A stretch of 64,000 nt of DNA from Irpex lacteus (taxonomy: Eukaryota > Basidiomycota > Agaricomycetes > Polyporales > Irpicaceae): NCBI GenBank assembly GCA_001986395.2, contig MQVO02000023.1, positions 1 through 64,000 on the forward strand, given 5' to 3'. Positions 8,091-28,537 of this stretch are shown here, piece after piece; positions within the stretch are counted from its first letter, which is position 1; each line of letters opens with the position of its first letter. The notes beneath the pieces were generated by a model, which saw only the letters and a program-made list of their open reading frames with translations, ran no database searches and was not told where the DNA came from. A program made the translations under genes and the position numbers.

Positions 8091-10237
8091 CTACGGCGTA
8101 TCAGCCTTACGTGCCCAGTTTAGCGGGGAGACGTGCCAACGCGGCAGGTTGTCAGCTCTGAAGGTGACATCCGCCTCCTCGTCGTAATCATCGGCAAAGT
8201 TGTCATTAGCCTGCGGTGTGAAGATGAACCCGTCCCTGATTGAATCCACCAAAGCGGTGATGGGTGTTTGTTCCACGGAAGGTATTGGTGGTAGTGTTCT
8301 GGCAGCCACCGGTGTTACGGGATCGACAGAAGAGCGTGCTTCTGAAGATGTGATGCGTCGCGGGGTTAGTTCATTATCCTGAGTAGCTGGAAGTGCGTTG
8401 CCTGTAGTGTGATCCGTTGAAGCCACTGACGATGATGAAGGCTCTGTAGGGGATGGAGGTAAAGGAATCTCCGCAGGCTGGGTGATCTTTGAAATGAGGG
8501 GGTCGATGACATTGTCCCGCTGGACTCGCGAGGTAGATGACGGCTTCGATTTCGTAAGTAAGGCGGGACCTTGTTTGTAATCTTTTGCTGCCTTGGATGG
8601 TGGGTGACTTTTCGCCTTCATGGCGGCCTCGACTCGTGGTTGATGCGAAACAGTCGTGGTGCTTTGGCGCGCGAGCTGGGACATAGTAGGTTTCGTAAGA
8701 CGGCTGCCCTCTTTTCTATGTTGGGGATTGCCAGCTGGCTTGTCAGCTTTGGGATGTGGTTTAGACACAGGTGGCGGGGGCTTAGATTTCCCTGGTCGCT
8801 TTTCCGATGAACTTGCGGTGTGGTCCGCTCGTGGTGCGGTTGTTACGCCGGATGAGGGGTGACTTATCCTTTCAGTTCCCGCGAGGGTCAGAGCGGTTAC
8901 AGAGGATGCGTTGGTCGGCATGGGGTTGGGCACGCTCTGAGAAGACGGCCGGACAGGTCCCTTCGAATGAGTCATCAGCTCAGCCTCTGGCAGTTGCTCC
9001 GGACGCAGCACACGTCTTGCGCCTCTGGCACGCCCATGCACTATGTCGTCGTGAACTTGAATGGCAGTCATCGGGACTGCTTGATGCTGGGTTAGGCCGG
9101 GCCTGAGAGGGCCATGCTTCGGCTTCTGTAGCTGCATATCACCATCATGTCTTGAACGAGGCTGCGATTCGACACGCTTTACGCCAAGGGGCTTGGAGTA
9201 TGATGCTGTGACCATGCTTTCCGCAGAGGTAGTACTACTGTACGATTCTGCGGGACTACGAGATCGTTCCGGAGCTTGGGCTATGTCTCGTGAATGCAAG
9301 GTTGACGACGGCAGAGCAGTATTTATCCCAGACACACTCAGTTGAGAGCCCGAGCGAGACCGAGCCGACGCGACGGGATTGCCAGATCGATATGTGCTAG
9401 TCGAGCGGACGACCTCCGGCTGACTTCGTTTGTTGTCATTGCCTGAGCCTGTAGACAGGGAGGACGTCGGGCGTGAGGTGGGCTGAGACGATAGACCAGA
9501 AGTAGCCCCTATATTAAGATACTTCCGAATAGTAGGAGTCATGGGTGCTGTGAAACTAACTGGATGTAAGCCGTTGGATTCACGCGACTCACACGTACAT
9601 CGCACCTGTTGATTCTTTCAGGGAGCAATACTTTGTAGGCATCAAACATCTGGCGACCGTATTTTCGAACGTCTGCGTTGGCATCCACCGCAGCGGTTTT
9701 GATGAGCAATTCCACCTCTTTGGCGCGAGCTTCCTTCTGTACGTCTGGTGGGTTTGCACAGTTGAGATACGTTAACGCCGCTTCAACTACCGTCAGGCGT
9801 ACTGATACCGCTTTATCGTGCGCATGCTGCGCGAGAAACGGCAGGAGCCACGGAGACTGAGTGGAAGAGATAATGGTTTTGAGACAAGTTCGTGCACGAT
9901 TCACGAAAACTTTGTTCGGTCTTGACGAGAGTGTTAGGAGAGTCGGCACAAACAGTGGGAGCAATGGATTGAAGGCATTTCCGAGCTCCATAACAGATGT
10001 TGAAAGAAGATCAATCGCATGGCCAGACAGGCGAGATCGCTCGGAAGAGACGGCGCTGTTGATAGCTTGCTCTTGAGAACGTAGAGCAAGTATGAGTTCG
10101 TCTGGAAGAACCGAAGAGTTCCATTCTACAATCCGTTTCAGCGTTTCAAGCCCGTTCGCAATGGTATTCCACGTGTCTTCCGATTCTTTCAATATAAGAG
10201 CGTCCTTTACTTGTCGAAGCTGTGGCTCTAAAGTCAT
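8091..10237 (-). CDS. CLASP-type TOG-domain microtubule-stabilising protein
   Basis: CLASP/Stu1 family proteins bind tubulin through TOG HEAT arrays and promote microtubule rescue at plus ends and kinetochores. The first exon (ATG 10235-10237, MTLEPQLRQVKDAL) encodes a helical HEAT/TOG domain of about 210 residues. It shows HAIDLLSTSVMELGNAFNPL, KVFVNRARTCLKTII and DANADVRKYGRQMFDAYKVL, the usual CLASP_N signature with consecutive helices. A short intron around 9590-9548 leads to PMTPTIRKYLNIG and a basic Ser/Pro/Lys-rich tail of about 480 residues that ends at TAG 8091-8093. The tail is unstructured and probably binds microtubules or EB1. The exact donor of the intron is ambiguous. A single TOG domain is short for the family (animal CLASPs have several). 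Only 200 bp separate its stop from that of bL34m. Confidence 0.85.
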
Positions 10238-14594: not shown

Positions 14595-17062
14595 CTATGG
14601 CCGCTGAGCTTGTGCGGCCTGAGCTTGCGCCTGCTCCTGGGCATGCCGAGCCCGGACGCGCTGTCTCTCCCTCTCGAACTTCTGTCTGAGGGCCAGCAGC
14701 CGTTGTTGATCGACTTGGGCGTTGAATCCGTGGCGGGCCGGCCCAACCGCCAGTGCCGGTGCGGCGTGGTGGTGCACATGTACATGATGAGCCCCGCCGC
14801 CGCGTACGACTGCAGCACCACCACCGACGACTTGCGCTCCCGGACGGGCTACGATGTTCGAGGGGCCTGCGACGGCGTTCGGCAGTTCGACATGAAGCTC
14901 CTTTTCCTCCACTCCAGGATTGGTGCGTTTCATCTCCTCGAGAGCTTTCTTGGCTGCAGAGGCCACCTGTTGATGAGGCAGATGTCTTGTCAATATGTGC
15001 AGAGTAGCGAGTGTTGACGGCACCGAGGCTGCTCTTACGAACCTCATCAGCATGTTGCTGTTCGATGTTAACTTGGTCCCACAACAAACACTTATTGGGA
15101 TCTGTGATTGCATTATTGCCTGGCATCTACAGTCGCGGAGTGTATTAGCCACGCCGGGCCGACTGCGTATGGAGACGAACCTGGTTGAAGTGGTTGTACC
15201 CCTTGATGATCTTGCGACAGATGTAACAGGATAAGGTCTTGCAGTTGGGACAGGTCATCTTGTTGCACTAAAATCGGATGCAGACGTGTCAATGATAGTA
15301 AGTCTAACGAAGGAAGGTACGTACGCCAGCCTCTTTCATGAAGGCTATAAGGAATAGCTTGTATGTAAGTCGCCGCCACAGAAGAAGAGAATTGATGTTT
15401 GTTTACTGACCTTTACTGCAGCGTGGACAGTTCCTTAACAGCGCTCGTGCTATCCAAAATTGTCAGAGGGTTGTCTATCAAGAGTCTATCGCTCACTCAT
15501 GGCTTCCTCGACGGCATGTCTAGCATGCAATGTCTTGTCGCTTTCGGCCTCTGTGCAACGGCACAACCAGTTAGACCGAGAAAAGAGCAATACGACGCTT
15601 GAAACGTTACCTTGACAGCCCTTTGGCAGATGGTCCTGATACGTAATTCAGCATGCACACCGCACACATACGCACACGAACCTAACATACAGGTTTCTTG
15701 CACGCCCGGCAGCTGACAACACCACAGTCATCCCTCGCGCATCTGAACAGCTTCTCGTGGGGGTTCTCGATGATCACCTTATAATCGCAGAACGGACATT
15801 CTTCCAGGTTCTCGACACCGGCGGCCTCGATCTCCTTCCTTTGCTTCACACGAAAATACAGTTCGAGTAACTTCTCCGGTAGAAACTTCTTCAGCTCATC
15901 TTCGTAGAAGGCGAGCTTGCATCCGGATTGGTCCATACAGATGATGTTTATGTCGTGTTCTCCGAGTTTGGTCTCTGAGTAGTGAGTCATGCAATCTCTA
16001 CAAAAAATATGAGCGTCGGGACATTGGATCATCTTCCGCTGAGATCCATATCGTCGTCAATATATGCTGGAATAAAAGGGGGAAGCAACTTACGAGAGAG
16101 TACTCGGAAAAGCAGCACCCGCACTCTATTCGACAGTCATCGGCATCCTGGACCTGTTCCGTCAGCTGTTCATCCCGAGCGACCGTATCCATCTCAGCCT
16201 TGTCAATAATCCAACGCTTCTCCTTCTCCAGCTCTTCGTCTACGCGGTCAGCCTGTTTGCCCTTCGCTCTGGCTCGAGATGACGCCGAACCACTGGTAAG
16301 ACGTTGGTACGGAAGCTGGCCACTGCGAAGTTCCGCTTCCAGGGCGAGGTAGGTCGGGGCGTAGAATGCATTGTGCTGAGTGAAAGTCCGTCGGATATGC
16401 GCCATTGGAGTGCAAGGGAAGCTAGCACGTAGTTGCTCCTGGAAACTCTGTCAGCTGGCGAAGCATCTCTTCAGTTTATTGCTGTGATTTACGATGGCGA
16501 GTTCATGGTATGATGGCCCACCCATACGTCGTCTGTCTTTACTGGCGTAGTCGATCTTCACCGCTTTCGATGCACCTGGGCACCCTTCTACACGCTCGTC
16601 GTCCTTCTTCCTCTTACCCTTTCCTTTGTTCTGCACCTTCGGGTAGTCAGGGTTCTCCAGTAGGAGGTTGACTACTTGCCCGACGACGTCTCCCTCACCC
16701 TTCTGCACAAGACCAGTGACATATGCGAGATCGACGTCCGGAATAATATCGAGTACCTTCACTACATAACGGTCAATGCGTTCCTGCACGCCTTCGGTCG
16801 ACGGCACGGGTGGCGCGACTCGTTTCTCATTGCCAGCGTCTTCGCTGTCGGACAGAAAGAGCGGATTATGGGGCCTCTCAGCTAGTCTACGCTGCACTGC
16901 GGGCCCTGCTTGGCGTCGATTTTCCTCGTCGTCAGAGAAGATCTCTATGACATCGGCCGACGCAGTGAACGGTGCCCTTCGTGCTCCTTGTATGTGACCG
17001 CCGCCTCGCACCCTAAAGCTTGAGCCCATAAACTCAATGTCGGAATCAGAATCGTCATTCAT
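14595..17062 (-). CDS. RBR-type E3 ubiquitin ligase of the RNF216/TRIAD3 group
   Basis: RING-between-RING ligases pass ubiquitin from E2 through a catalytic Cys in RING2. ATG 17060-17062. The acidic N-terminus (MNDDSDSDIEFMGSS) includes VIEIFSDDEE, which resembles a SUMO-interacting motif. A middle helical region follows (ERIDRYVVKVLDIIPDVDLA). RING1 begins ECGCCFSEYSL and continues across an intron into RKMIQCPDAHIFCRDCMTHY. The IBR is ECPFCDYKVI...LFRCARDDCGVVSCRACKKP, then DHLPKGCQ, DKTLHARHAVEEAM, RALLRNCPRC, and RING2 CNKMTCPNCKTLSCYICRK with GYNHFN. This linear order and the DHLP, HAVEEAM and GY.HF motifs match RNF216 rather than Parkin or HHARI. The C-terminal tail is Gln/Ala/His-rich and coiled. 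About nine short introns, no disruption. The transposon described next ends about 110 bp upstream of the start. Confidence 0.9.
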
Positions 17063-17172
17063 GAAGGTAAGACGGTGATGAAGGGAAGGAATAAGGCAAG
17101 AAAAGAACCGGCGGGAGGTGGTCGTTCTGGTCTGGGTTTATATGTCTGAGCTTTGACGCCCCACTTATCGAG

Positions 17173-17400
17173 GGCGGTTCACAATTTAACTTGGGCGTGT
17201 AACTTTTGCTAACTTTTCTATTAACAAAGTAACTTCCAAGTTAACTTAGCTAACTTGCGGGCAAAAAGTTAACAAAAGTAACTTGCGTAACTTCCAAGTT
17301 AGCAGAAGACCGGAATGCAAGTTAGATAGTTGAGTGGGCAAGTTAGGGCTCGCGTGCGCAAGTTAAGTGCGATGCGAATTAACTTGCGCGCTTGGACATC
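17173..17400. repeat. Left subterminal array of TAACTT/AAGTTA motifs
   Basis: About 15 copies of the 6-mer in both orientations in about 210 bp, often as CAAGTTAAC or GTAACTTGC and spaced irregularly. Probable transposase or zinc-finger binding array of the surrounding transposon. The spacing pattern is seen directly; the binding role is inferred. Confidence 0.8.
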
Positions 17401-18238
17401 CGAGCCGAACGGCCATGAGATTCTATTCACGGCGTGTGCTTTGTACGCATCTATGGCCCAGTTGGTTAACTCTTCGTGCTGCATCAGCGGAACTTGTGTA
17501 CCCGGGCTATTGAGCGTAAGTTCGACTCCCGCTGAAGGAGTGATCTGTCCGCTGAGGTAAGCGGACTTGCGTGGCTTATGAGTGCCGTCTACTGATGGTG
17601 TTCTGCTCCCACGCGATGACGATTATGTCAACCCTTTTCTTTCATTCAACTTGGACCTGAACGACGACGAGCATCAAAGGTAGCGTTACTTTTAGTCCGC
17701 CGCACTTACCAGATGTTGAACAACTACACATTTCTTCAGCTTTATACACAGCAGTCATGCACGATCGCTCCTTGTTGCCATCTCGTAGGTCCTCACGTTG
17801 AGAGACTACGCCAGGCCTGAGATGGCTTCGAGTTCGTCTAAGGTGCGGGACATGGGACTTTGTGTCCTATAGCCCTTACCTTTGACGAGTTTGAATGCCA
17901 TCCACTTGTTACGCGTATGCGTGCAAGCCGCCACTAACTCGCTGGTCCGCTGGATCAACTCAACGTGGCCAGCGGGGGCCTGTCGTACATGTGCAAGTAC
18001 AAGTCCACCTGGGATCGTTGGATTCCTGGTCTGTAGTACGTTCGTGTCATCTATTTGTTTTGTTTATTACCCATTTGCCCAGTGAACGACTTGCTTTACA
18101 CTACACCGCGATCGTCTCCAGATAGACGATTTACTTCCGTTGATCGAGAGCGCTAAGTATTTTCCATGATTTTCCCTCGATCTCGTCCCACAGCTCAGTC
18201 CGCCACCTTCATCATCCTCTGCAGCAGCTAGGCATATC

Positions 18239-21200
18239 ATGCTTGACGCTGCGCTAGCTTTCTTTGGGCTCCAGCGCAGAGGTTCCGCTCAAGTATTCGA
18301 AGGCGCCAATGCACCAGCGCTACGTTGGACTGTGGAAAACGGTCAAATTTGGGGTGTAGTTCTCTACTGTTAATATAAGTTCTTGTTCGTTTCTGATTCC
18401 ATTCACATATAGCTAGCTTTCCGTTTACGGGAGGGCCTGTCTCCACCGGGTCCAGTGCTGGTAATAATCCTCCACCTCCTGCGGCCCCCTCGCTCGTACC
18501 TCCCGGAACAGCTGCTTCATCACCAATACCTGCTGTTTCTTCTCATGGTGAGTCCTCATAGTCTCAATTAATTTTTTGAATATTCAGCCCACTGATTCAC
18601 CTTGTATTTGGCGGTCAGGAGTTCCTTCGACCTCAAGTCAGCTTGCTTCACCACCTCGGGACGAAGCAGTGGGCACAGAGCCAGGCTTGCATAGCACAGC
18701 GCCATCGGAGTCTCCCGAAGGTAATTCCACAAACCAAACCGGTGAGTCTTAATCTGGCAATTATAACGGGCCGGTGTACCTTTACCGTAGCACGGTTTCT
18801 GACAGTATTGGGGTCCCCTTGTATAGATTGGCCCAACGGATATCAGCGCCGTGAAATCCCACTCGACAACGTTATAAACGTTCCACGTAACCGTCGGTCT
18901 CAAACGAAGTGGGTGACACGATCAACTGGAAATCGTGCGCATGCCGAATCTGCGAATCGAAAGGCTGAACGGCGTGGGTGTCTTGGTGTCTTGCAATGCG
19001 AGACTTGTCGGTCTCTCAAGCGGCCATACACTCAGCCGGATAGTCTGAAACAGCAGCTCATCAAGAACTGCACCTATGCACGCTGTAGGGACCCTCGACT
19101 GCAACACATACAATGCGGTGCTTACACTCTCCAGTGGGAGGCACAAACTGATGGCGGTGTTGTCCTGATATGGGAGCACCATGGCGAGCATGATCACGGT
19201 CAACCTCCGGATGCTCGGCTCTCTCAAGAAGAGCAGGAGCGTGTAGATGCGCAAGTTGCACTTCGTCCTGACGCCTCCGCGCATCAACTGCGCACCGGCT
19301 CCCTAACTCCTGGATCTGTTCCGCTGGGAGAAATCTCAGAGAAATTAGCTAACCCCAGGAAAGCTCGAGCTGCGCTTTCAAAGAGCCGTGAACGTCTCGG
19401 TTTGCAGCCGGAGTCTCACAAAGGAGCAGCCGGATTTCTAAAGGGCGTTGAAACGCTCTTCGAGGAGACTATCAAGGAGCCGTTCCTCATTGGGTCTGGA
19501 CTTGTTCGCCCCGCCTACATCTGCGTACAAACAGACTTTATGCGAAAGGTGCTGTACGACGCTGTGCAAGACTGGCTACGTGCTGCTGCTGAGGGACCCG
19601 ACGTTGGGCGACATGGATCTGTCACAGATGGTGATAACTCGTTTTTCAGTCAAGGCAATGTCATTACAACATGCATGTTCAACCTGACTGCGAACCAATG
19701 GGCACCGGTGCTCTATACCTGGATGTTTCACGTCGACACCGATCACTATCGCATTCACTTCCTTCAGCTAAACCGTGATCTCATCAAGGCTGCCGGTGAT
19801 AAGTTTGACCGCCGTCTCCTCAGCGGTGTAAGTGTTAAGCTCTTCATGTCTATACCTTTCTAATCATGGTTTTACTGAGATATAGGTCTTCGACTTCTCC
19901 GCTGCACAACGTCTAGCTCACGAACAGGCGTTCGCGGATGCCATCATCGGTACTATGCCCCAGTGGTCTATGCTTGGGCCCAAAGCGCAGGAAGCGCAGA
20001 GGCAAGAGCTATGCGAGGAAGCACGAAAGCACCAGAAGGGATGCGAAAGTCATTTTCGCACCTCGGTAAAACGTGTGAAGCAGAGCCATGAGCTAGTTCC
20101 GCCTGACCAGCGAGAAAGCTTCGATGACCTCATCGCCACATTTCTCTCCTCTGACACCACGTCCGAGGAATTTGATGATGCTGCTCACACAATGCGGAAG
20201 CGTTTCCCGAAAGTCAATTCTTGGCTTTCTTGGTGGTTGTCGAAACAGTTCGCCTCGATGATCTTTCCCGCCAAGCGCTCTATGTCTACTGCACTAGCTC
20301 GCGAGTTGCCCAACACTTCCAACCCTGTTGAGAATCGCCACTCCCAACTACATCATGGTACAGGAGTACATCAGGATATCATACCCGGGCTTCACAACCT
20401 GTATTTACACGTCAAGGCCCTGGAAAGAGAAACAAAGAGTATTATTGGTATAGTTATCATTTTACTTTTGATGAGCGAAAGCATTAGCGTGACGTTCTAA
20501 CACCTGAATATTACAGATGGGCATGCAACTGCGAGTGCAAGAATAGAGACGAAACGGCCGCCGCGAAATGTGCATTTTTACGAGAACGATGGGCGTGCTC
20601 CCGACACAGTCGAACGCTTACAGGCCACAGAAGCTTCCACATCTGGCACTGGCAAGCGGCGAGCTCGAGGCTCAAATCGCAGCAGCGGTACTAAGAAACA
20701 AACCGTCGCCACACCTACCCCACCGAAGAACACGGCGACTGCATTCAAAGCAGAAGATGATTCGCGATCGCTTTCGCTAGTAGACCCGAGTCGTGCTCAG
20801 CTGCGTCGGCTTCAATCGTACCAGTGGGCTAACAACTCTTGCTTCATTGATGTAGGACTCGAATTATGGTTCGAGGCATACTCGCGGTGGACAACTGAGG
20901 AGCAGCTGAGTTTCCTCCGAGATCAGGCAATGCTCGGCAGTCCACTACACTCAATTTGCTTGAACTTCAAGAACCGAGCGAGCTGGATAGCAGCACCTGG
21001 ACTTCCTACAAAGCAGCCCGGTGCACAGGTTGCGTCATCGTTAAAAGGCAAAACCAGAGAAGTGTGGTATGCAGAAGAAGACAACATTGCGAGAGGGTTC
21101 GATATCCTTGATGTCAGCCAGCGTGCAGTTCGTCATGCGGTAATCGAGTGGGCGAAGTCTCCTAACAATCAAGCACTCGAGACGTTTCGTGACGGCCCCG

Positions 21201-24200
21201 CATCTTTCGGGGAGACTCGAGCTGTGTTCAAGAATGCGATCATGGTATGTTTCCTTTGCAGAAGTCAGCAAACTAGAGGCTTATATTGCCTTGTAGGATA
21301 AGACGACCCTGCGCGCAAAGCTACAGTTCGCGATTCGTCATCGTGTTCTATTCAATTGCACTCATGGCCACGATACGTCGTCCTACACCACAATCCCCAC
21401 ACCTATCCTTCCACTGTGCAGTCATGACAACGCACGCGCTGGACTTGCATGTGGACTTGACACTGTCGGATTGGATGATGGCCCGGGTGTCGACATTGGA
21501 AGATATCTCTCGCACCTTCTTCCTCGCCTTCAGGGGAGTTCTGTCGCATCATACAACTCGGGCGAACGACTCTGCGAGATAGAACCTCCCACTTGCGCGT
21601 ATCCACAATGTGGTCAAGATACTACCCTTCAGGCCATCCGAACCGAGTGGCCGCGTGTATTACACGTTGTGCCTGAAACATCTCACAACAGCGATCCCCA
21701 ATCGGCAAGTATCAATCCTTCTCCAGTTCAGTTCACAATCGCTTTTGATGTCTGGTCGCAGAGACATGACGCTGCTGGATACGTCAATCCGGCTAGTCTT
21801 GAAGCAGAGTGGGGATCACAACCGGCGGTATCGGTGCGCTATGAGCTTTTTGGAAGGCTCATCTTCCATGAAGATCGAGCTCACTACACGGCTCAAGTTA
21901 TCATTGGTGACCGATCATACTTGTATGACGACATGGTTCGGGAGGGAGTCCTGGCCGATATAGGACCCAAAGAAGCCATTCTTGCACCAACTGCCGGAGT
22001 CGCCATGGTTTTGTATCATCGTGTCTCTGAGAGTAATGTGCGACATTTTATTAAGTAAACTTACTTTCGCGGCTACACTGATAATTGATACGCAGGTTAC
22101 CGAACAAGACATTGAATATTTGAGAAACACGCCAAAAGATATTTCACACATAGTCGCTAAGCAGAAGCCCATTGAGATTTCCGATAACTCAGATGATTCT
22201 TCGGTCGGACAGCCTCTTGCTCAGATCCGAAAGGCTGTGAGAAAGCCAAAACAAACGAAGTCAAAGGTGCGTAGTATGGTCAACTCGTACCTCATGCCTT
22301 CATATTTACCTAGTATCGTCATAAGACACAGGCTCAAGGCAATCCAGGCCCCACCGTGGCTGGTCCTAATGTGTCTCCTCCACGTCACACTAACCCTCAA
22401 TCACTTCTGAACAAGCACGGGGACCTCGAAGAGGACCAGAAATTCGAAACCTTTCTCCAGGGAATAGGCCAGCTTCATTACCGACCCAGTGCCGAACCAT
22501 CTGTTGCAAGCTCTGGCGACAAATCGGTTGTCAACTGCAGTGGGTGCGACATAACTGAAGACGTTGGTAACATGATCCAATGCAGTGCATGTGGCGAGTG
22601 GTCCCATCAAGACTGCATCAGAGTCCAACACGGTCTCCCTCTATCGGCGGTTGCAAATCTCGATGCACGTTGGGACTGTCCACGGTGCGATACAAACACA
22701 CCCTTATGGGACGATTCTATGTAAGTCATGATGGAGTCGCCGGACACATCAAATCGCTTTCTATATCAATGTGACAACGAGCTTCGAGTCTGATCATTTG
22801 GATTCCAGTATAGGGCAATACATTCTTCACACGACGATTCCAGATGGTCCACTCTACCCAGCACAAATACTTCGGCGTGAAGGTTTCAACGCAGTTGTCG
22901 AGTGGTACTATGGTAATCACTATGGAGGTTCAGGCAGACGGGGCAGCCGAAAGGAGCAGCCAAAGTCGAATCTGATCAAGATTCCTATTCACCGGTGCGC
23001 TGCCGCTGCTCGAGATCGTGAATGGACTCATGGGAGAAAAGCGGTAAGCATCTGAATTTCCTGCTAGAATTGGAGATAACTCACGTTATCATGGCACCTA
23101 CTGCAGCGTATAGGCATGATAAAGTGGCCACTGCGTCTTTTTGACAACGCACATGACCTATACAGCTATACAAATGCCGAGATCACCACTGCGCTTGAAG
23201 ACGCATTTCCCTCAGTACTTGGCATACTGTGCAGGGAACGCGAACATCCTATTATCGAGAAGTTCACCGAGGGCCTACGGAAGGGTATTCCCAAGATCGA
23301 CGACTCATTAGACTTCGTTCAGAAGTTCAATGCCCTTGTATTACCAGGGGACGACTCGTTAATCCATACTTACATCACCCTCCTGAATAGAATCATGTAT
23401 CGGCGTATGCTCGTATCAGGTACACTACCCGTGCCTGGCACTGGACGAGCATGGACAGGCGATTGGATCACCGCACTCGTGAACGGTCCTGGAATTGTTC
23501 TATTTCGGCTCGTTATTCTTCGGCTCTACCTGCAGAAATCGCCGTCCTATGACTACGAGATCTATCGTATAGTAATTGGAGCACTCGACGAAACTACTGC
23601 CCACGAGGAGCAAGTCAAAGCCCAGAGAGCCGAGAACTCACAGTTAGACAACTTGGAGTTGTCAGCAGATCTTTCCAGTAGCGCATCTGGTACTTGGTCT
23701 GACTCCCAGAACGACATCCTTGCAGCAGCGGATGCACCATTCCAGCCATCACTTCGCATCACACGCCGCATGACAGTTCCCGAACAAGCCTATGCAGCAT
23801 GCCTGCATTGGCGAATCACGGACTCATGGGACGGGCAAGAATCCCAGCCGTCATTGGAGCCAACAAAACAGAGAGTGCAGAAAGATGATGCTCTTGTTTT
23901 ACGCTATGATCCCCCGCTTGCGTTCGTGGAAACTAGGCCTGGAACGGATGCATATGCATGGCCAGACGTGGGAGCTCAGGTTGAGCCAGGCGAGCACGGA
24001 CTGACAGGAGGGACTCCCTTTGCGACGTTGGTTCAGGAAGTTGATGGAGCGGGACCAGATGCCGAACTCCGAGGCCCCAAACCTCGACCACGACCGGTGG
24101 CTAAAAAGTCGATACCACCGACTGCTGATGGACCAAGAGAAGGAGGGAAAGTGTCCGAGTCCGGCACCACGACACGGGGGAGCATCAAGCAGGGAGAGCA

Positions 24201-24297
24201 GCCCGAGGAGGAGATTGGCAAAAAGCGCAAGTCAGCCCGGCTCTCTGGTGTTATGATGGCTAGCGGGTCGACGACGAAGAAGACAAAGAAAGGTTAG
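18239..24297 (+). CDS. Giant transposon protein: WRKY-GCM1-type zinc finger, D-D-E transposase, USP-like peptidase, PHD finger
   Basis: Frame and splice signals can be followed from a putative ATG at 18239 to TAG 24295-24297 through about ten short introns, giving roughly 1,600 residues. In order: a Pro/Ser-rich head; a GCM-like finger (DWPNGYQRREIPLDN, GCLGVLQCETC, NCTYARC, GEHDHGQPP); an RNase H-fold core with D in VTDGDNSFF (19627), D in VFDFSAAQR (19892), CESHF, and E in TSNPVENRHSQL (20330); and a papain-like USP module with Cys in WANNSCFIDVGLELWF (20840) and His in RAHYTAQVIIGDRSYLYDDM (21882). Then come a PHD finger (CSGCD, MIQCSACGEWSHQDC, WDCPRC), a small beta-rich domain (YPAQILRREGFNAVVEWYYG), a helical domain and a Lys/Arg tail. 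Proteins pairing these fingers with transposases are known as WRKY-GCM1 elements; the peptidase and PHD on the same chain are unusual. The start and the first two exons are least certain. It could also be split into two genes near 20500. Confidence 0.78.
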
Positions 24298-25363
24298 ATG
24301 GACGATACAGTACAGTGGTGTAGTTGTGTAAATTTGCATTCGTACCGTTACCCTTGTGTCTCTGCATCAGACTAGGCCACAGTAGCTCAGCCAAAGATCC
24401 CTAGTACGACACATAAAGGTCAATATACAAGTTAATGAAGTATCATTACAAGTTAGTGAAGTGTCCTTACAAGTTACATAACAAGTTACGTTACAAGTTA
24501 CGTTACAAGTTAGCACAAGTTACAAGCAAGTTGGCACAAGTTACGACCAAGTTAGCCCAAGTAAGCACCAAGTAAGCACCAAGTTAGCAACGATTCGCAA
24601 GTTAGTAGCAAGAATCGAATTGTAGGTTAGCAATGAGGAGACTAGTTGAACAACCAATGTACCATTGCAGTCAGATAATATGTACAGGACATGATCAATA
24701 CGGAGATGAGAATCAGAGTCGCGGTGTGAGGACCCTGACAACGAGCGGACACATCGAGGATTTCTTCTGACGGCCCGAACATCGGTGGCGCACCATAAAT
24801 GGTATTTATTGAATGTCGTACTTACATTCTATGCTATAAAACACCTGAATGCGTGCGCGCAATGAGATGAAGCATGTTCGATGAGTAGAGGTCGTTTGGG
24901 CGCTTATACAAACGATATCGTCGACGCAGCACGTCCTACTCCCCGATTAAGAGCTGGCTACTCCAGGGAGCCGGCGGGAAGCATATGTGAGTACCGGACA
25001 AACACAACGGTGAACAGCTCACTGCTTAACTTAGTAGCCCTCCTCCCAGCGAAGCAGAACCGGCGGCGTACGGTGTTATCCGAGTCCGAGTCACTGTTCC
25101 AGTCGTAGTGCACATAGTGAGTCGGTTACGAACCCCATTTTATGTGGCTAGCAACAGTGACCTAACGGTATGTACTGAGGGCAAATCCAGTGTTGCAATT
25201 GCCAGTGTAGGGGTGGACTCAAGCATCGACCAAGCCCAAGTTAACGATCCAAGTTAACGATCCAAGCGCCCGCAAGTTACGCAAGTTAACGCTACAAATT
25301 TGGCGGGGAAAAAGTTAAACAAGTTAGGCAAGTTAGCGCGGACAAGTAACTTTGCGCGCCCTC
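24298..25363. repeat. Right subterminal region with CAAGTTA arrays
   Basis: Two clusters, 24420-24610 and 25240-25350, contain about 19 copies of AAGTTA, mostly as CAAGTTA and in one orientation, some in near-tandem form (ACGTTACAAGTT and CCAAGTTAACGAT repeats). The stretch between them is the 3' flank of the transposase gene plus a small possible ORF. The array ends at the right terminus of the transposon. Confidence 0.8.
24881..25108 (+). CDS. Small possible ORF inside the transposon 3' region
   Basis: An ATG-initiated frame starts MSRGRLGAYTNDIVD. It could be read straight through, or spliced at ATAT|GTGAGT with acceptor CTTAG at about 25033-25035, which would give about 60 residues ending LSESESLFQS. 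No domain is recognised. It lies on the transposase strand, about 580 bp after its stop and between the two motif arrays. It may be a second small transposon protein or chance; the evidence is weak. Confidence 0.25.
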   Translation: MSRGRLGAYTNDIVDAARPTPRLRAGYSREPAGSICEYRTNTTVNSSLLNLVALLPAKQNRRRTVLSESESLFQS

Positions 25364-25424
25364 CTTATCGAGAAGTCCCCAATCTGGACGACCGCACCAT
25401 TTTTGGACACAGCGCTCGTAAAAT

Positions 25425-25966
25425 ATGAGACGCTTGCTGCTGTATAATAGTGTTATCGGTTCCACGTTCGCGTCATGTATTCGACTTTCCACGTCAACTC
25501 CGAGTCGCACGACACACAAATACATGATATTCAAGTTCAAGCGTTTGACGCAGAACCTGTACCCGCCGCCGCTAGCAGCCAACCATTCGACTACGTCCTG
25601 TACTAATGCCATCAAGACGCAGGGCTTCAAGTCCTTCAAGTTAGGCCGCTTCCTCGTCGAACTGTTTAAATTCGGTTCGACACGCGCACCTAAATCAAGG
25701 TCTCTTGCGCACTCAGGCTTTGTTTCCAGCTTCTGGCTGCACCGAAGACTATGATGTAATCATGGATAAGGCCTATAAGAAGGCAGAGAAATTGGCTTTA
25801 CTTGGTGGAGGTGACGAGTCAACACGCGCAGCTCATGGGCCTCGATGTCGGGCCTTATCCCGGAGGAACATAACTTGGAGGTATTCAGGGACAAGTATAA
25901 GCCTCCTAAAAAGAGGAAAGAGCCCCTCGTAGATGCTGCACAGATTGTTATTGATGTAAATGACTA
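25425..25966 (+). pseudogene. Unidentified coding remnant
   Basis: Plus-strand frames change from MDKAYKKAEKLALLGG to GLIPEEHNLEVFRDKYKPP and a Lys-rich end (VDAAQIVIDVND, stop near 25966) without a credible splice path joining all parts. The codon-like composition and basic tail suggest the 3' end of a real gene, possibly of another mobile element. I do not recognise the family. Confidence 0.3.
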
Positions 25967-26179
25967 AAATGTAACTAAATTGATATTATTATACGTTGAC
26001 CCATGCATCAACTTCAATACTGCCTGACCTGCACTCTTGCTTGACTTATGCCTTAGGTATCTATGACCTTCAGGTTTAGACACCCATAGGTAACCGCACG
26101 GAGCCACCTGCGACGATTCACAGGTAACCCGTACCCGTGCAGAGCTTTAGCACTGGAGGCTTGTGTTTGTCTGAGATAA

Positions 26180-27122
26180 TGACATGGGACTCTGCTACAG
26201 GTTAAGAAAATCGCAGAGACCGTTCGTAATGTGGGGACGACTTGCTTTCGGCTTCTTCAAGCGGTAGCTATTCCCGCAGCACTTCGCCGTTCCTCCAACA
26301 CTTCTCGCGAAGATGGACCATCGAATTCCAGCCCTGACTCCGGCAGTAGTGCACCAACTACAGTCTTGGCACTTGGTGAAGATCATCAAACAAATAGTCA
26401 GCAGAGATCGATTAATTGTAAGTTGATGTTAGCTGCCAGTTCATGTAGCACGCACTGCTATTGGATAATGATGCCGGCTCTCATGATGCCTTTGAACGCT
26501 CGGAATCTACGCTTCACGGCGTTCCAGAAACTTATATATCAGGGTGTCGCTTTTTGCTAACTCAGCATCGCGGCACATATAAGATGTGCTTGGAAGGATT
26601 GGCCTCTCCGTTTCATCATACACGGTTCGCAAGGTTCTGCGGCAGCTTACTGAATCCGCGCAGACCTCCATTCGCATATCGGCTGCTCTTAGGAACTTTT
26701 TATTTGCCTACGACAACATCAACCCCCAGCGTCGTGTGTACGATGTCGAGATGGGCGAAACCGATATCATGGATAGCGGAACCGCAGCAGCATTCAAGTT
26801 TGTCGTCACTGAGGACTGCGATCCCGAGGTTGCGTTTGATGCACACGCACTTGACAAAGCAAGAGCTAAGCCACAGCGAAGTCAGTTAAGGGTTGAAGTG
26901 CTGAAGAAATGAGTCGATTGGACAAGTCTCCGAAATGTTATGGCGGTCCATGTCGATTTTCTCCTTAGTAGCCAACACGTCTCGTCTCTTGCAGGATTAC
27001 AGAAAGACTTGAACAATCGCCTTCGAACTCAGCTTGCTAAACAGTGCTCAGCGGCGTTCCGGCAGAATTTGTTGATACCCTACACGATTGAAGGCCAGAC
27101 AATACTAGAGGCCTACAGATAG
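26180..27122 (+). pseudogene. DUF6589-type protein remnant
   Basis: DUF6589 proteins are a large agaricomycete family of unknown, probably mobile-element-related function. Recognisable in plus-strand frames: RGTYKMCLEGL at 26569, then after a likely splice GLSVSSYTVRKVLRQL, FLFAYDNINPQRRVYDVE and NGTAA-like DSGTAAAFKFV (26600-26830), and VMAVHVDFLL...SLAGLQKDLNNRLRT (26937-27040). The signature FAYDNIN is typical. The frame stops at 27121 soon after, far short of the 700 or more residues normal for the family, and the upstream exons are only partly joinable. It is therefore a 3'-truncated relic. Confidence 0.6.
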
Positions 27123-27319
27123 CTAATCTGTATAAGAAGAAACCGCACACCTTTCGTAGAGTAATCGCGAGGTCAAGAAGATCATACATCGAACCCCATC
27201 GGGTGCAAACCCACTTCAGAAGTTGTAACGTCTTGAGACCCTCTTCTGCGCAAGTTGTCTCGAAATAAGCTCGAGCCTGGGGAGACGCACGTATCTGAAA
27301 ATGGTTGTAAGGGATCGTA

Positions 27320-28537
27320 TCAACATTTCACAAATATGCATACCTGATTGATAAGAGCGAGAAGTTTTCCGAGAGGGTCACTGGGCTCGAAACTCGCAGG
27401 TTCTTCTGGGTCCCCATTGTCATCTTCACTCTCATCAAAGCTGTTGTCCCCGTTGATATCTTCGTCCGATGACTGCTGCGCCTTCTTGAACTGAGTTGGA
27501 GTTGGACAAACAGTTGTAACGACATCTCTTGCACAGATCTGCACGATATGCTCAATGCACCGAGCACGGCGCTCAGAAGCGACTCGGCGATACACGTTGG
27601 ATCTTGGAGACAGCGCTGGAGAATGCTCATACACTTGTCGTTCACACGCACGTTATCCGAAGTGATCCACCCCAACTTTATAGAATGATTAGCCTGCGCT
27701 CATATGCTACACAGAGACCGCTAGAACATACCTTCCTACGGATGCCGTAGCGATCGACAACTCGCAGAATCAGGGTCGCTGTGTTTGCACTCCCATGATT
27801 AACTTTGATAGGCAAGAAGCTTAAGATTCTCGACTTCAGCTCCCACCTAGGATGACTTGAAGCTTGGAGAGAGGCACTAATATAGTGATCTTTTATAGCT
27901 AGATATGGATTTGCGCTTGTGCGTGCGTTTCACTTGCTGGGTTTTTCGCTTCTTTTTTGGCTGCGCAAGTTTCTTTTCAGCTGTTCAAATAAATTCGTAG
28001 TAAACATCCCACACGCCTTTTCGAGGATAACCTCTTCGTCGCTGCTGACTGCAGGAGCTTCGTCGTCTTCATCAGAACTCTCCATGCTCGAAGGCTGAAA
28101 CTGCTCTCCATCGGAAACAGCAGCTGGTCCGGCAGGCGCCGCGTTGGGTGAGTTGGGCTTGGGACGTCCGACCTGAGACTTCTTTCGTGAGTTCTTGTCA
28201 CCACTCCGGTCAGTAGACGTAGTTTTCTTTGCTGTGGTTGTAGATGTGGGAGGGAAGTACTTGGTGATTGGCTCCAACGGACCTTGCCTGCATGCTTCCA
28301 CGTCGGCCGTGATGTACGCAATGGACGAGCACCGTCGTTGATAGCTGGGTCTAAAGTTGAGGACTGTGAGGGCGAATTAGTTAGAATTTCATAGTACGTA
28401 CCTGCACGCGGCGCCTTCTGGAGGGGAGTAAGATCAGACTCAGAGTCATAGAAGTCAATTTCGTCAGTCTCCTTCAGCCTGTCATCGGCATCAATGGCAC
28501 ACCCGCGAGAGTCTGCAGCGGTTTGCTCGTCAGTCAT
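27320..28537 (-). pseudogene. hAT-superfamily transposase remnant
   Basis: The minus-strand segment about 27675-27320 shows KLGWITSDNVRVNDKCMSILQ followed, in a second frame, by ERRARCIEHIVQICARDVV and PTPTQFKKAQQ with an acidic stretch. This matches the middle of hAT transposases around the second catalytic Asp (GW.T.DN..ND) and the conserved C..H block. One frameshift separates the two halves. Upstream, 28537-27930, two overlapping frames encode a Ser/Lys-rich N-terminus (MTDEQTAADSRG; a Pro/Ser/Asp tail) that may belong to the same gene. The RNase H C-terminal part and dimerisation region are absent, so the gene is dead. Confidence 0.55.

What the first reader, a model, noticed from the sequence alone, without database searches (positions are those of the whole stretch)
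17173..25363. Large DNA transposon encoding a GCM-finger transposase, a USP-like peptidase and a PHD reader in one gene
Seen: a nearly perfect boundary pair (CTTATCGAG on both sides), motif arrays at both ends and one long multi-exon frame with D-D-E residues. Known: WRKY-GCM1 zinc fingers are shared between transposases and transcription factors. Inferred: this is an intact, possibly recently active, MULE-like element with an unusually modular transposase. The combination of finger, transposase, ubiquitin peptidase and histone reader on one chain is the most novel feature in the window.
Basis: partly seen in the sequence, partly recalled or inferred. Interest (0 to 1): 0.92.

Follow-up and report, generated by a model that had tools for sequence, protein, structure and literature searches.

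The report
Mushroom transposon with built-in ubiquitin peptidase
A jumping gene in a wood-decay mushroom makes one long protein that appears to join a DNA-cutting enzyme to a ubiquitin-removing enzyme and a histone-reading finger, and the same combination recurs in other mushroom genomes, so it offers a way to study how a jumping gene may deal with the host's chromatin and protein-tagging systems.

Summary
Window 17173-25363 is a DNA transposon with a perfect 9-bp target-site duplication. Five short non-autonomous copies in the same genome share both ends, each with its own 9-10-bp duplication. Its single gene (11 exons, 1796 aa) encodes, on one chain, a GCM zinc finger, a DDE transposase, a ubiquitin-specific-protease (USP) fold with Cys-His-Asp triad, and a PHD finger; a further conserved domain may be Tudor-like (not established). 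Of 43 relatives found, all 42 with a named source are mushroom-forming fungi; 17 of them keep the DDE, USP and PHD residues on one chain. Module divergences are correlated, so the fusion looks old and co-inherited. Models of two homologues support GCM and USP strongly and a DDE nuclease fold moderately. The MULE label fits duplication size and fold, but Pfam MULE does not match and profile comparison with this genome's MULEs is marginal. What peptidase and reader do is inferred: probably acting on chromatin-bound ubiquitin, or protecting the transposase. Transposons with other deubiquitinases or Ulp1 are known; ten searches of an open-licence library found no USP-DDE fusion. New variant of a known kind.

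The parts
17164..17172 (.). left target-site duplication CTTATCGAG
   Evidence: direct repeat with 25364-25372
17173..25363 (+). whole transposon, 8191 bp
   Evidence: ends shared with five non-autonomous copies in the same genome
17173..17400 (.). left subterminal array: CAAGTTA 9 times, on both strands
18239..24297 (+). transposase gene, 11 exons: 18239-18353, 18413-18547, 18619-18741, 18827-19827, 19886-20447, 20517-21244, 21297-22037, 22096-22266, 22332-22720, 22809-23043, 23107-24297; 1796 aa
   Evidence: first exons chosen to match annotated homologue P0001
18979..19197 (+). GCM zinc finger (aa 176-248, C and H ligands)
19627..19629 (+). first catalytic Asp (D392)
   Evidence: D in 43 of 44 sequences, E in one
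19892..19894 (+). second catalytic Asp (D461)
   Evidence: D in 41 of 41 sequences without a gap there; 3 gaps
20042..20053 (+). CxxH motif (C511, H514) between the second Asp and the Glu
   Evidence: C and H in 39 of 39 sequences without a gap there; 5 gaps
20330..20332 (+). catalytic Glu (E607, SNPVENRHS)
   Evidence: E in 42 of 42 sequences without a gap there; 2 gaps
20801..22037 (+). USP-like peptidase region (from aa ~741, over two exons)
20840..20842 (+). USP catalytic Cys (C754, NNSCFID)
   Evidence: C in 35 of 36 sequences without a gap there; 8 gaps
21882..21929 (+). USP catalytic His (H1084) and Asp (D1099), HYTAQ...YDD
   Evidence: H in 31 of 32 (12 gaps); D or N in 31 of 33 (11 gaps); whole triad in 29 of 44
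22536..22691 (+). PHD finger (C4-H-C3, aa 1261-1311)
   Evidence: Pfam PHD E 3.9e-7, 30.4 bits over the 24-bit cut-off; family profile vs solved PHD fingers, e.g. Cph2 8i02 E 3.2e-8 and TAF3 2k16 E 1.7e-7
22809..23043 (+). conserved WYxGNxY domain, tentatively Tudor/chromo-barrel-like
   Evidence: conserved in 11 aligned pieces; best PDB match KDM4B E 1.3, not significant
24426..24610 (+). right inner array, CAAGTTA 11 times, all on + strand, with 11-, 12- and 21-bp periods
25237..25340 (+). right terminal array, CAAGTTA 6 times, all on + strand
25364..25372 (.). right target-site duplication CTTATCGAG

Best explanation
This is an intact-looking autonomous cut-and-paste DNA transposon of a family found so far only in mushroom-forming fungi. 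Shown: the element's ends and duplications, the single open gene, GCM, DDE, USP and PHD modules with conserved active-site residues, short copies with the same ends and their own duplications, and correlated divergence of the modules. Inferred: the GCM finger binds the CAAGTTA arrays near the ends, the RNase H domain cuts and joins with a 9-10-bp stagger, and the C-terminal half works in cis at the integration or excision site. There the PHD (and perhaps the following Tudor-like domain) would dock the complex on histone H3 tails, and the USP would strip ubiquitin from nearby chromatin proteins (H2A/H2B) or from the transpososome, favouring access, target choice or persistence.
For: Ends and duplications. 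Open gene with ten GT-AG introns and a matching annotated architecture in other species. DDE triad in 39, USP triad in 29, all eight PHD ligands in 21, and all of these together in 18 of 44 sequences, window included; most misses are alignment gaps, as expected from short or differently annotated gene models. Fold matches for GCM and USP, and moderate ones for DDE. PHD over Pfam cut-off. Pairwise distances correlate: DDE-USP r 0.88 over 32 sequences; DDE-GCM 0.91, DDE-PHD/Tudor 0.76 and USP-PHD/Tudor 0.76 over 20 sequences; 0 of 2000 permutations reached the value in each of the four tests. No relative of the USP+PHD piece on its own scored among 7418 candidates of similar length. A paralogue in the same genome, about 25% identical (C255 from about 62002), shows GCM, D/D/E, USP Cys and His boxes, PHD-like cysteines and a VRWWRHC motif in order in its frames.
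Confidence: 0.68

Rival explanations
1. The USP acts mainly on the transposase itself or on its partners, protecting them from ubiquitin-dependent degradation, with no histone role; the PHD is only a chromatin anchor.
For: Erven et al. 2022 suggest this kind of role for deubiquitinases encoded by Helitrons (PMC9741609, passages read). The USP is fused to the transposase and its divergence follows it.
Against: Does not explain why a PHD finger and a further conserved domain are kept on the same chain.
Confidence: 0.3
2. The peptidase removes SUMO or another ubiquitin-like tag rather than ubiquitin, comparable in role to the Ulp1 domain of plant Kaonashi MULEs, and serves to escape silencing.
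Confidence: 0.12
3. The transposase does not belong to the Mutator superfamily but forms its own DDE lineage with GCM finger and 9-10-bp duplications.
For: 0 of 21 members scanned match Pfam MULE at E 0.1 or better. Profile comparison with this genome's canonical MULEs is marginal: score 24.2, against a 95% point of 23.4 and a maximum of 26.2 in 100 shuffles. P element and RAG1 tie with ISCth4.
Against: 9-10-bp duplications, a helical insertion with CxxH motif, and ISCth4 (IS256 family, recalled as the bacterial relative of Mutator) among the top fold matches. With a smaller family alignment the comparison gave E 0.027 and aligned both the CxxH and the Glu motif.
Confidence: 0.3
4. It is a domesticated host gene or a dead relic rather than a mobile element.
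For: Only one full-length copy with these exact ends was found; no transposition observed.
Against: Perfect target-site duplication, open frame, non-autonomous copies with the same ends and own duplications, and further gene copies in the genome.
Confidence: 0.05

Closest known systems
Mutator-like elements (MULE/MuDR superfamily)
   Same: 9-10-bp target-site duplication, DDE core with helical insertion, zinc finger of the WRKY-GCM class (class recalled), subterminal repeats
   Different: no Pfam MULE match; extra USP and PHD modules on the chain; short imperfect inverted ends
Rehavkus elements
   Same: 9-bp duplication, PHD finger in the transposase and a minisatellite before the 3' inverted repeat, as described by Dupeyron et al. 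2019 (PMC6446971, passages and outline with abstract read)
   Different: reported there from arthropods and annelids; no GCM finger or USP mentioned in the passages seen; no sequence comparison could be made here
Plant Kaonashi/VANDAL MULEs with Ulp1 peptidase
   Same: a MULE-type element carrying a peptidase for a ubiquitin-like protein, with an anti-silencing role discussed (PMC13317346, passages read)
   Different: Ulp1, a different peptidase family (recalled), in one of three separate genes, not a USP fused to the transposase; no PHD mentioned in the passages seen
Helitrons with VTD or OTU deubiquitinase domains
   Same: transposon protein carrying a deubiquitinase on the same chain (Erven et al. 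2022, PMC9741609, abstract and passages read)
   Different: rolling-circle elements; VTD/OTU folds, not USP; no DDE transposase, GCM or PHD mentioned in the passages seen
Fungal DNA transposons with TET/JBP dioxygenase
   Same: fungal elements carrying an epigenetic enzyme (PMC12730594, start of abstract in a listing and one passage read)
   Different: acts on methylcytosine, not ubiquitin; the words GCM, ubiquitin, PHD and protease do not occur in its main text
ISCth4, P element, RAG1 and Hermes transposases
   Different: 6-10% sequence identity in the aligned parts; no GCM or USP known in them (recalled)

Membership tests
Mutator-like (MULE) superfamily | target-site duplication of about 8-11 bp | tested here: met
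   9 or 10 bp at six of six insertions with both ends
Mutator-like (MULE) superfamily | RNase H-type DDE core with a helical insertion before the Glu | tested here: met
Mutator-like (MULE) superfamily | CxxH motif between second Asp and Glu (recalled as shared by several superfamilies, so not exclusive) | tested here: met
   39 of 39 sequences without a gap; 5 gaps
Mutator-like (MULE) superfamily | sequence match to the MULE transposase profile PF10551 or to MULEs of the same genome | tested here: inconclusive
   no match at E 0.1 in 21 of 21 members scanned; hhalign score 24.2 vs shuffled 95% point 23.4 and maximum 26.2 of 100, reversed 19.6; E 0.027 with a smaller alignment
Mutator-like (MULE) superfamily | placement inside a MULE phylogeny | not tested
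   no reference MULE alignment was at hand
USP (peptidase C19) fold | Cys box, His box with following Asp/Asn | tested here: met
   C 35/36, H 31/32, D or N 31/33 of sequences without a gap; all three in 29 of 44
USP (peptidase C19) fold | USP three-dimensional fold | tested here: met
USP (peptidase C19) fold | sequence profile match (Pfam) | tested here: inconclusive
   no UCH/USP family listed for window exons or 21 homologues
USP (peptidase C19) fold | cleavage of ubiquitin | not testable with these tools
   needs an enzyme assay
GCM zinc finger | GCM sequence and fold with zinc ligands | tested here: met
PHD finger | C4-H-C3 and profile match | tested here: met
   30.4 bits against a 24-bit cut-off
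Rehavkus | relatedness of the transposase core | not testable with these tools
Tudor/chromo-barrel domain | profile or fold match | tested here: inconclusive
   PDB E 1.3 at best; one Pfam Tudor_3 hit at E 0.12 in 1 of 11; not folded

The most novel reading that the evidence does not exclude
The family is a separate DDE lineage whose transposase is a self-contained chromatin-editing machine: one chain finds its own ends (GCM), cuts DNA (DDE), reads histone marks (PHD and a Tudor-like domain) and removes histone ubiquitin (USP), so that excision or integration is coupled to local chromatin state. It has been kept as a unit in many lineages of mushroom-forming fungi.
Probability: 0.25. Interest if true: 0.8.

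Novelty: new variant of a known kind. Interest (0 to 1): 0.62.

Why it matters
Transposons that carry an epigenetic or ubiquitin-pathway enzyme are known, in the cases I saw as a separate gene or in rolling-circle elements. Here a USP-type peptidase and a histone-reader finger appear covalently joined to a DDE transposase, with active sites conserved across many genera of mushroom-forming fungi and with ready-made short substrates in the genome. If confirmed, it would make directly testable why mobile elements recruit deubiquitinases, and it would offer a natural fusion of a DNA-joining enzyme with a chromatin-targeting module. It also suggests that some fungal proteins labelled only 'GCM domain-containing' or 'PHD-type' are transposases.

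Tried and rejected
Gene-model artefact: rejected, because 17 homologues and the window keep the DDE triad, USP triad and all eight PHD ligands on one chain, although the PHD positions are gaps in 21-22 of 43 homologues. Chance boundary repeat: rejected by independent copies. My first view that the C58 and C313 short copies had lost their right ends was wrong: their right ends lie 10.6 and 7.9 kb from the left ends because other sequences are inserted in them. Relatives of USP+PHD on its own: none scored (limited to proteins of 0.55-1.75 times query length). Profile comparison with this genome's MULEs: marginal; groups G2 and G3 of those MULEs scored lower (21.3 and 11.0). dN/dS against the C32 paralogue: synonymous sites saturated (pS 0.78-0.92), no ratio obtainable. 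Right end of the C32 sister copy: not found. Tudor identity: not established. A tRNA-like look of 17455-17540: no tRNA by ARAGORN (bacterial code) and no Rfam match. Alignment A3 was made but not used further. Literature: ten searches in an open-licence library showed no report of a USP-carrying DDE transposase in their listings; two papers recalled as relevant (a 2006 WRKY-GCM1 paper and a 2014 fungal KDZ paper) were not held, and Repbase was not searchable.
Full report
WHAT IS THERE. The window lies in a 44.3-Mb genome of 317 contigs. The closest protein found is from Irpex lacteus, 96% identical over 64% of the query, so the host is probably an Irpex or close relative (inference). The 8191-bp element at 17173-25363 is flanked by CTTATCGAG on both sides.

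The ends are confirmed from outside the window. Searching the genome with the element's DNA gave short copies that share 79-89% identity over about 100-135 bp of the left and 56-125 bp of the right end. Six insertions, the window's included, have both ends, and each is flanked by its own perfect 9- or 10-bp direct repeat. The other five are non-autonomous elements of about 0.87-0.90 kb; two of these are interrupted by other insertions. End-pattern searches with up to 2 mismatches found 9 left and 8 right ends, and none for the reversed patterns. Two right ends (both on C308) and two left ends (C32 and C308, sister subfamily) could not be paired. A second short family, GAGGGTT...ACCCTC, 954-964 bp, has perfect 9-bp duplications at three of three complete copies; a fourth copy aligns only over its first 555 bp or so.

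The terminal inverted repeat is short and imperfect. Instead, CAAGTTA crowds the ends: 26 of the window's 32 occurrences lie in 631 bp of them.

THE GENE. Eleven exons with ten GT-AG introns of 52-88 bp give 1796 aa without an internal stop. The first exons were chosen among many possible splice combinations (1368) to match annotated homologue P0001. P0002 (Irpex rosettiformis, 1815 aa) is 55% identical over the whole query length.

In order, the chain carries: a GCM finger (Pfam E 3.1e-4, under its cut-off; family profile vs the solved MGCM1 E 5e-13); a DDE core (D392, D461, E607) with a CxxH motif; a USP region with C754, H1084, D1099; a PHD finger (Pfam 30.4 bits over 24); a conserved domain with W-Y-x-G-N-x-Y that might be Tudor-like (unproven); and a C-terminal part ending in a basic tail.

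Among 44 aligned sequences (43 homologues and the window): first Asp 43 of 44; second Asp 41 of 41 and Glu 42 of 42 without gaps; peptidase Cys 35 of 36, His 31 of 32, Asp or Asn 31 of 33 without gaps. Counting gaps as misses, the DDE triad is complete in 39, the USP triad in 29, the eight PHD ligands in 21, and all of these in 18 of 44. The D/N alternation at the last USP position is typical of USPs (recalled).

RELATIVES. Two searches gave 43 proteins; all 42 with a named source are from mushroom-forming fungi by my knowledge of the genera. Only the candidates sharing most words were scored, so the list is not complete. The same genome holds a sister copy on C32 with all coding modules but no right end found, and one on C308 that matches it at 99.4% over 4.9 kb and 95.3% over 1.3 kb but is split by about 35 kb and lacks the 3' part in the stretch fetched. 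A distant paralogue on C255 (about 25% identity) has the modules recognisable in its frames. Distances in the modules rise together (DDE-USP r 0.88, n 32; DDE-GCM 0.91, DDE-PHD/Tudor 0.76, USP-PHD/Tudor 0.76, n 20), which fits one old fusion inherited as a unit. The permutation test shows co-divergence, not the direction or date of the fusion.

HOW IT MAY WORK. Shown: ends, duplications, open frame, modules, conserved active sites, short copies with the same ends. Inferred: the GCM finger binds the CAAGTTA arrays; the DDE core makes 9-10-bp staggered joins; PHD and the following domain dock on chromatin; the USP removes ubiquitin (or a relative) from chromatin proteins or from the transposase. 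I give about 0.4 to a chromatin substrate, 0.3 to self-protection, 0.12 to a SUMO-like substrate, the rest open. One observation fits, but does not prove, promoter targeting: the element sits 101 bp upstream of the likely start codon of an RBR-like gene (ATG at 17062, minus strand). Only this one site was examined.

AGAINST. No expression or activity data. Pfam sees neither MULE nor USP by sequence. Profile comparison with canonical MULEs of the genome is marginal, so I call it Mutator-like by duplication size and fold, not a proven member. The PHD positions are gaps in 21-22 of 43 homologues.

NOVELTY. Precedents seen in print: PHD-bearing Rehavkus (PMC6446971, passages and outline with abstract); Ulp1-bearing plant MULEs (PMC13317346, passages); deubiquitinase-bearing Helitrons (PMC9741609, abstract and passages); TET-bearing fungal transposons (PMC12730594, abstract start in a listing and one passage). 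The ten literature searches listed under Tried and rejected showed no USP fused to a DDE transposase. The combination is therefore judged a new variant of a known kind.

Noticed in passing
L052-L056 (G000:C308:2782876-2818244): A sister copy is split by about 35.4 kb with inverted ends AGTGAACGACAAGGGTA and an about 10-bp direct repeat; inside lies a 2568-aa frame with Helitron_like_N, DUF6570 and PIF1 helicase domains. Whether this is one giant element or nested ones was not resolved.
   Followed up: partly
L050 (about C58:1495033-1504739) and L051 (about C313:42008-49005): Two short copies of the family are each interrupted at nearly the same position (856-857 of 885 bp) by 9.7-kb and 7.0-kb insertions that do not match each other; the C58 insert holds an 814-bp inverted repeat, the C313 insert a 90-bp one.
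   Followed up: partly
window 15682-17062, minus strand: RING-between-RING-like E3 ligase gene (by motif; Pfam zf-RING_14 E 0.013, under cut-off) starts about 101 bp from the element. Erven et al. describe an RBR-deubiquitinase fusion gene in Agaricomycetes; whether this is that gene was not checked.
   Followed up: partly
L016, L017, L018, L019: Second non-autonomous family (954-964 bp, GAGGGTT...ACCCTC) with perfect 9-bp duplications at three copies; its left end resembles the C32/C308 sister copies, which may have moved it (inference).
   Followed up: partly
window 25829-26152 and 27048-27392: Stretches right of the element match other contigs at 66-80% identity, so further repeats lie there.
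   Followed up: no
L037-L048: At least 12 places with a Pfam MULE transposase match over the cut-off exist in the same genome, distinct from this family.
   Followed up: partly
L029 (C32), reverse complement 8124-8575: Direct repeats spaced 175 bp, 90% identical, follow the sister copy's coding region.
   Followed up: no
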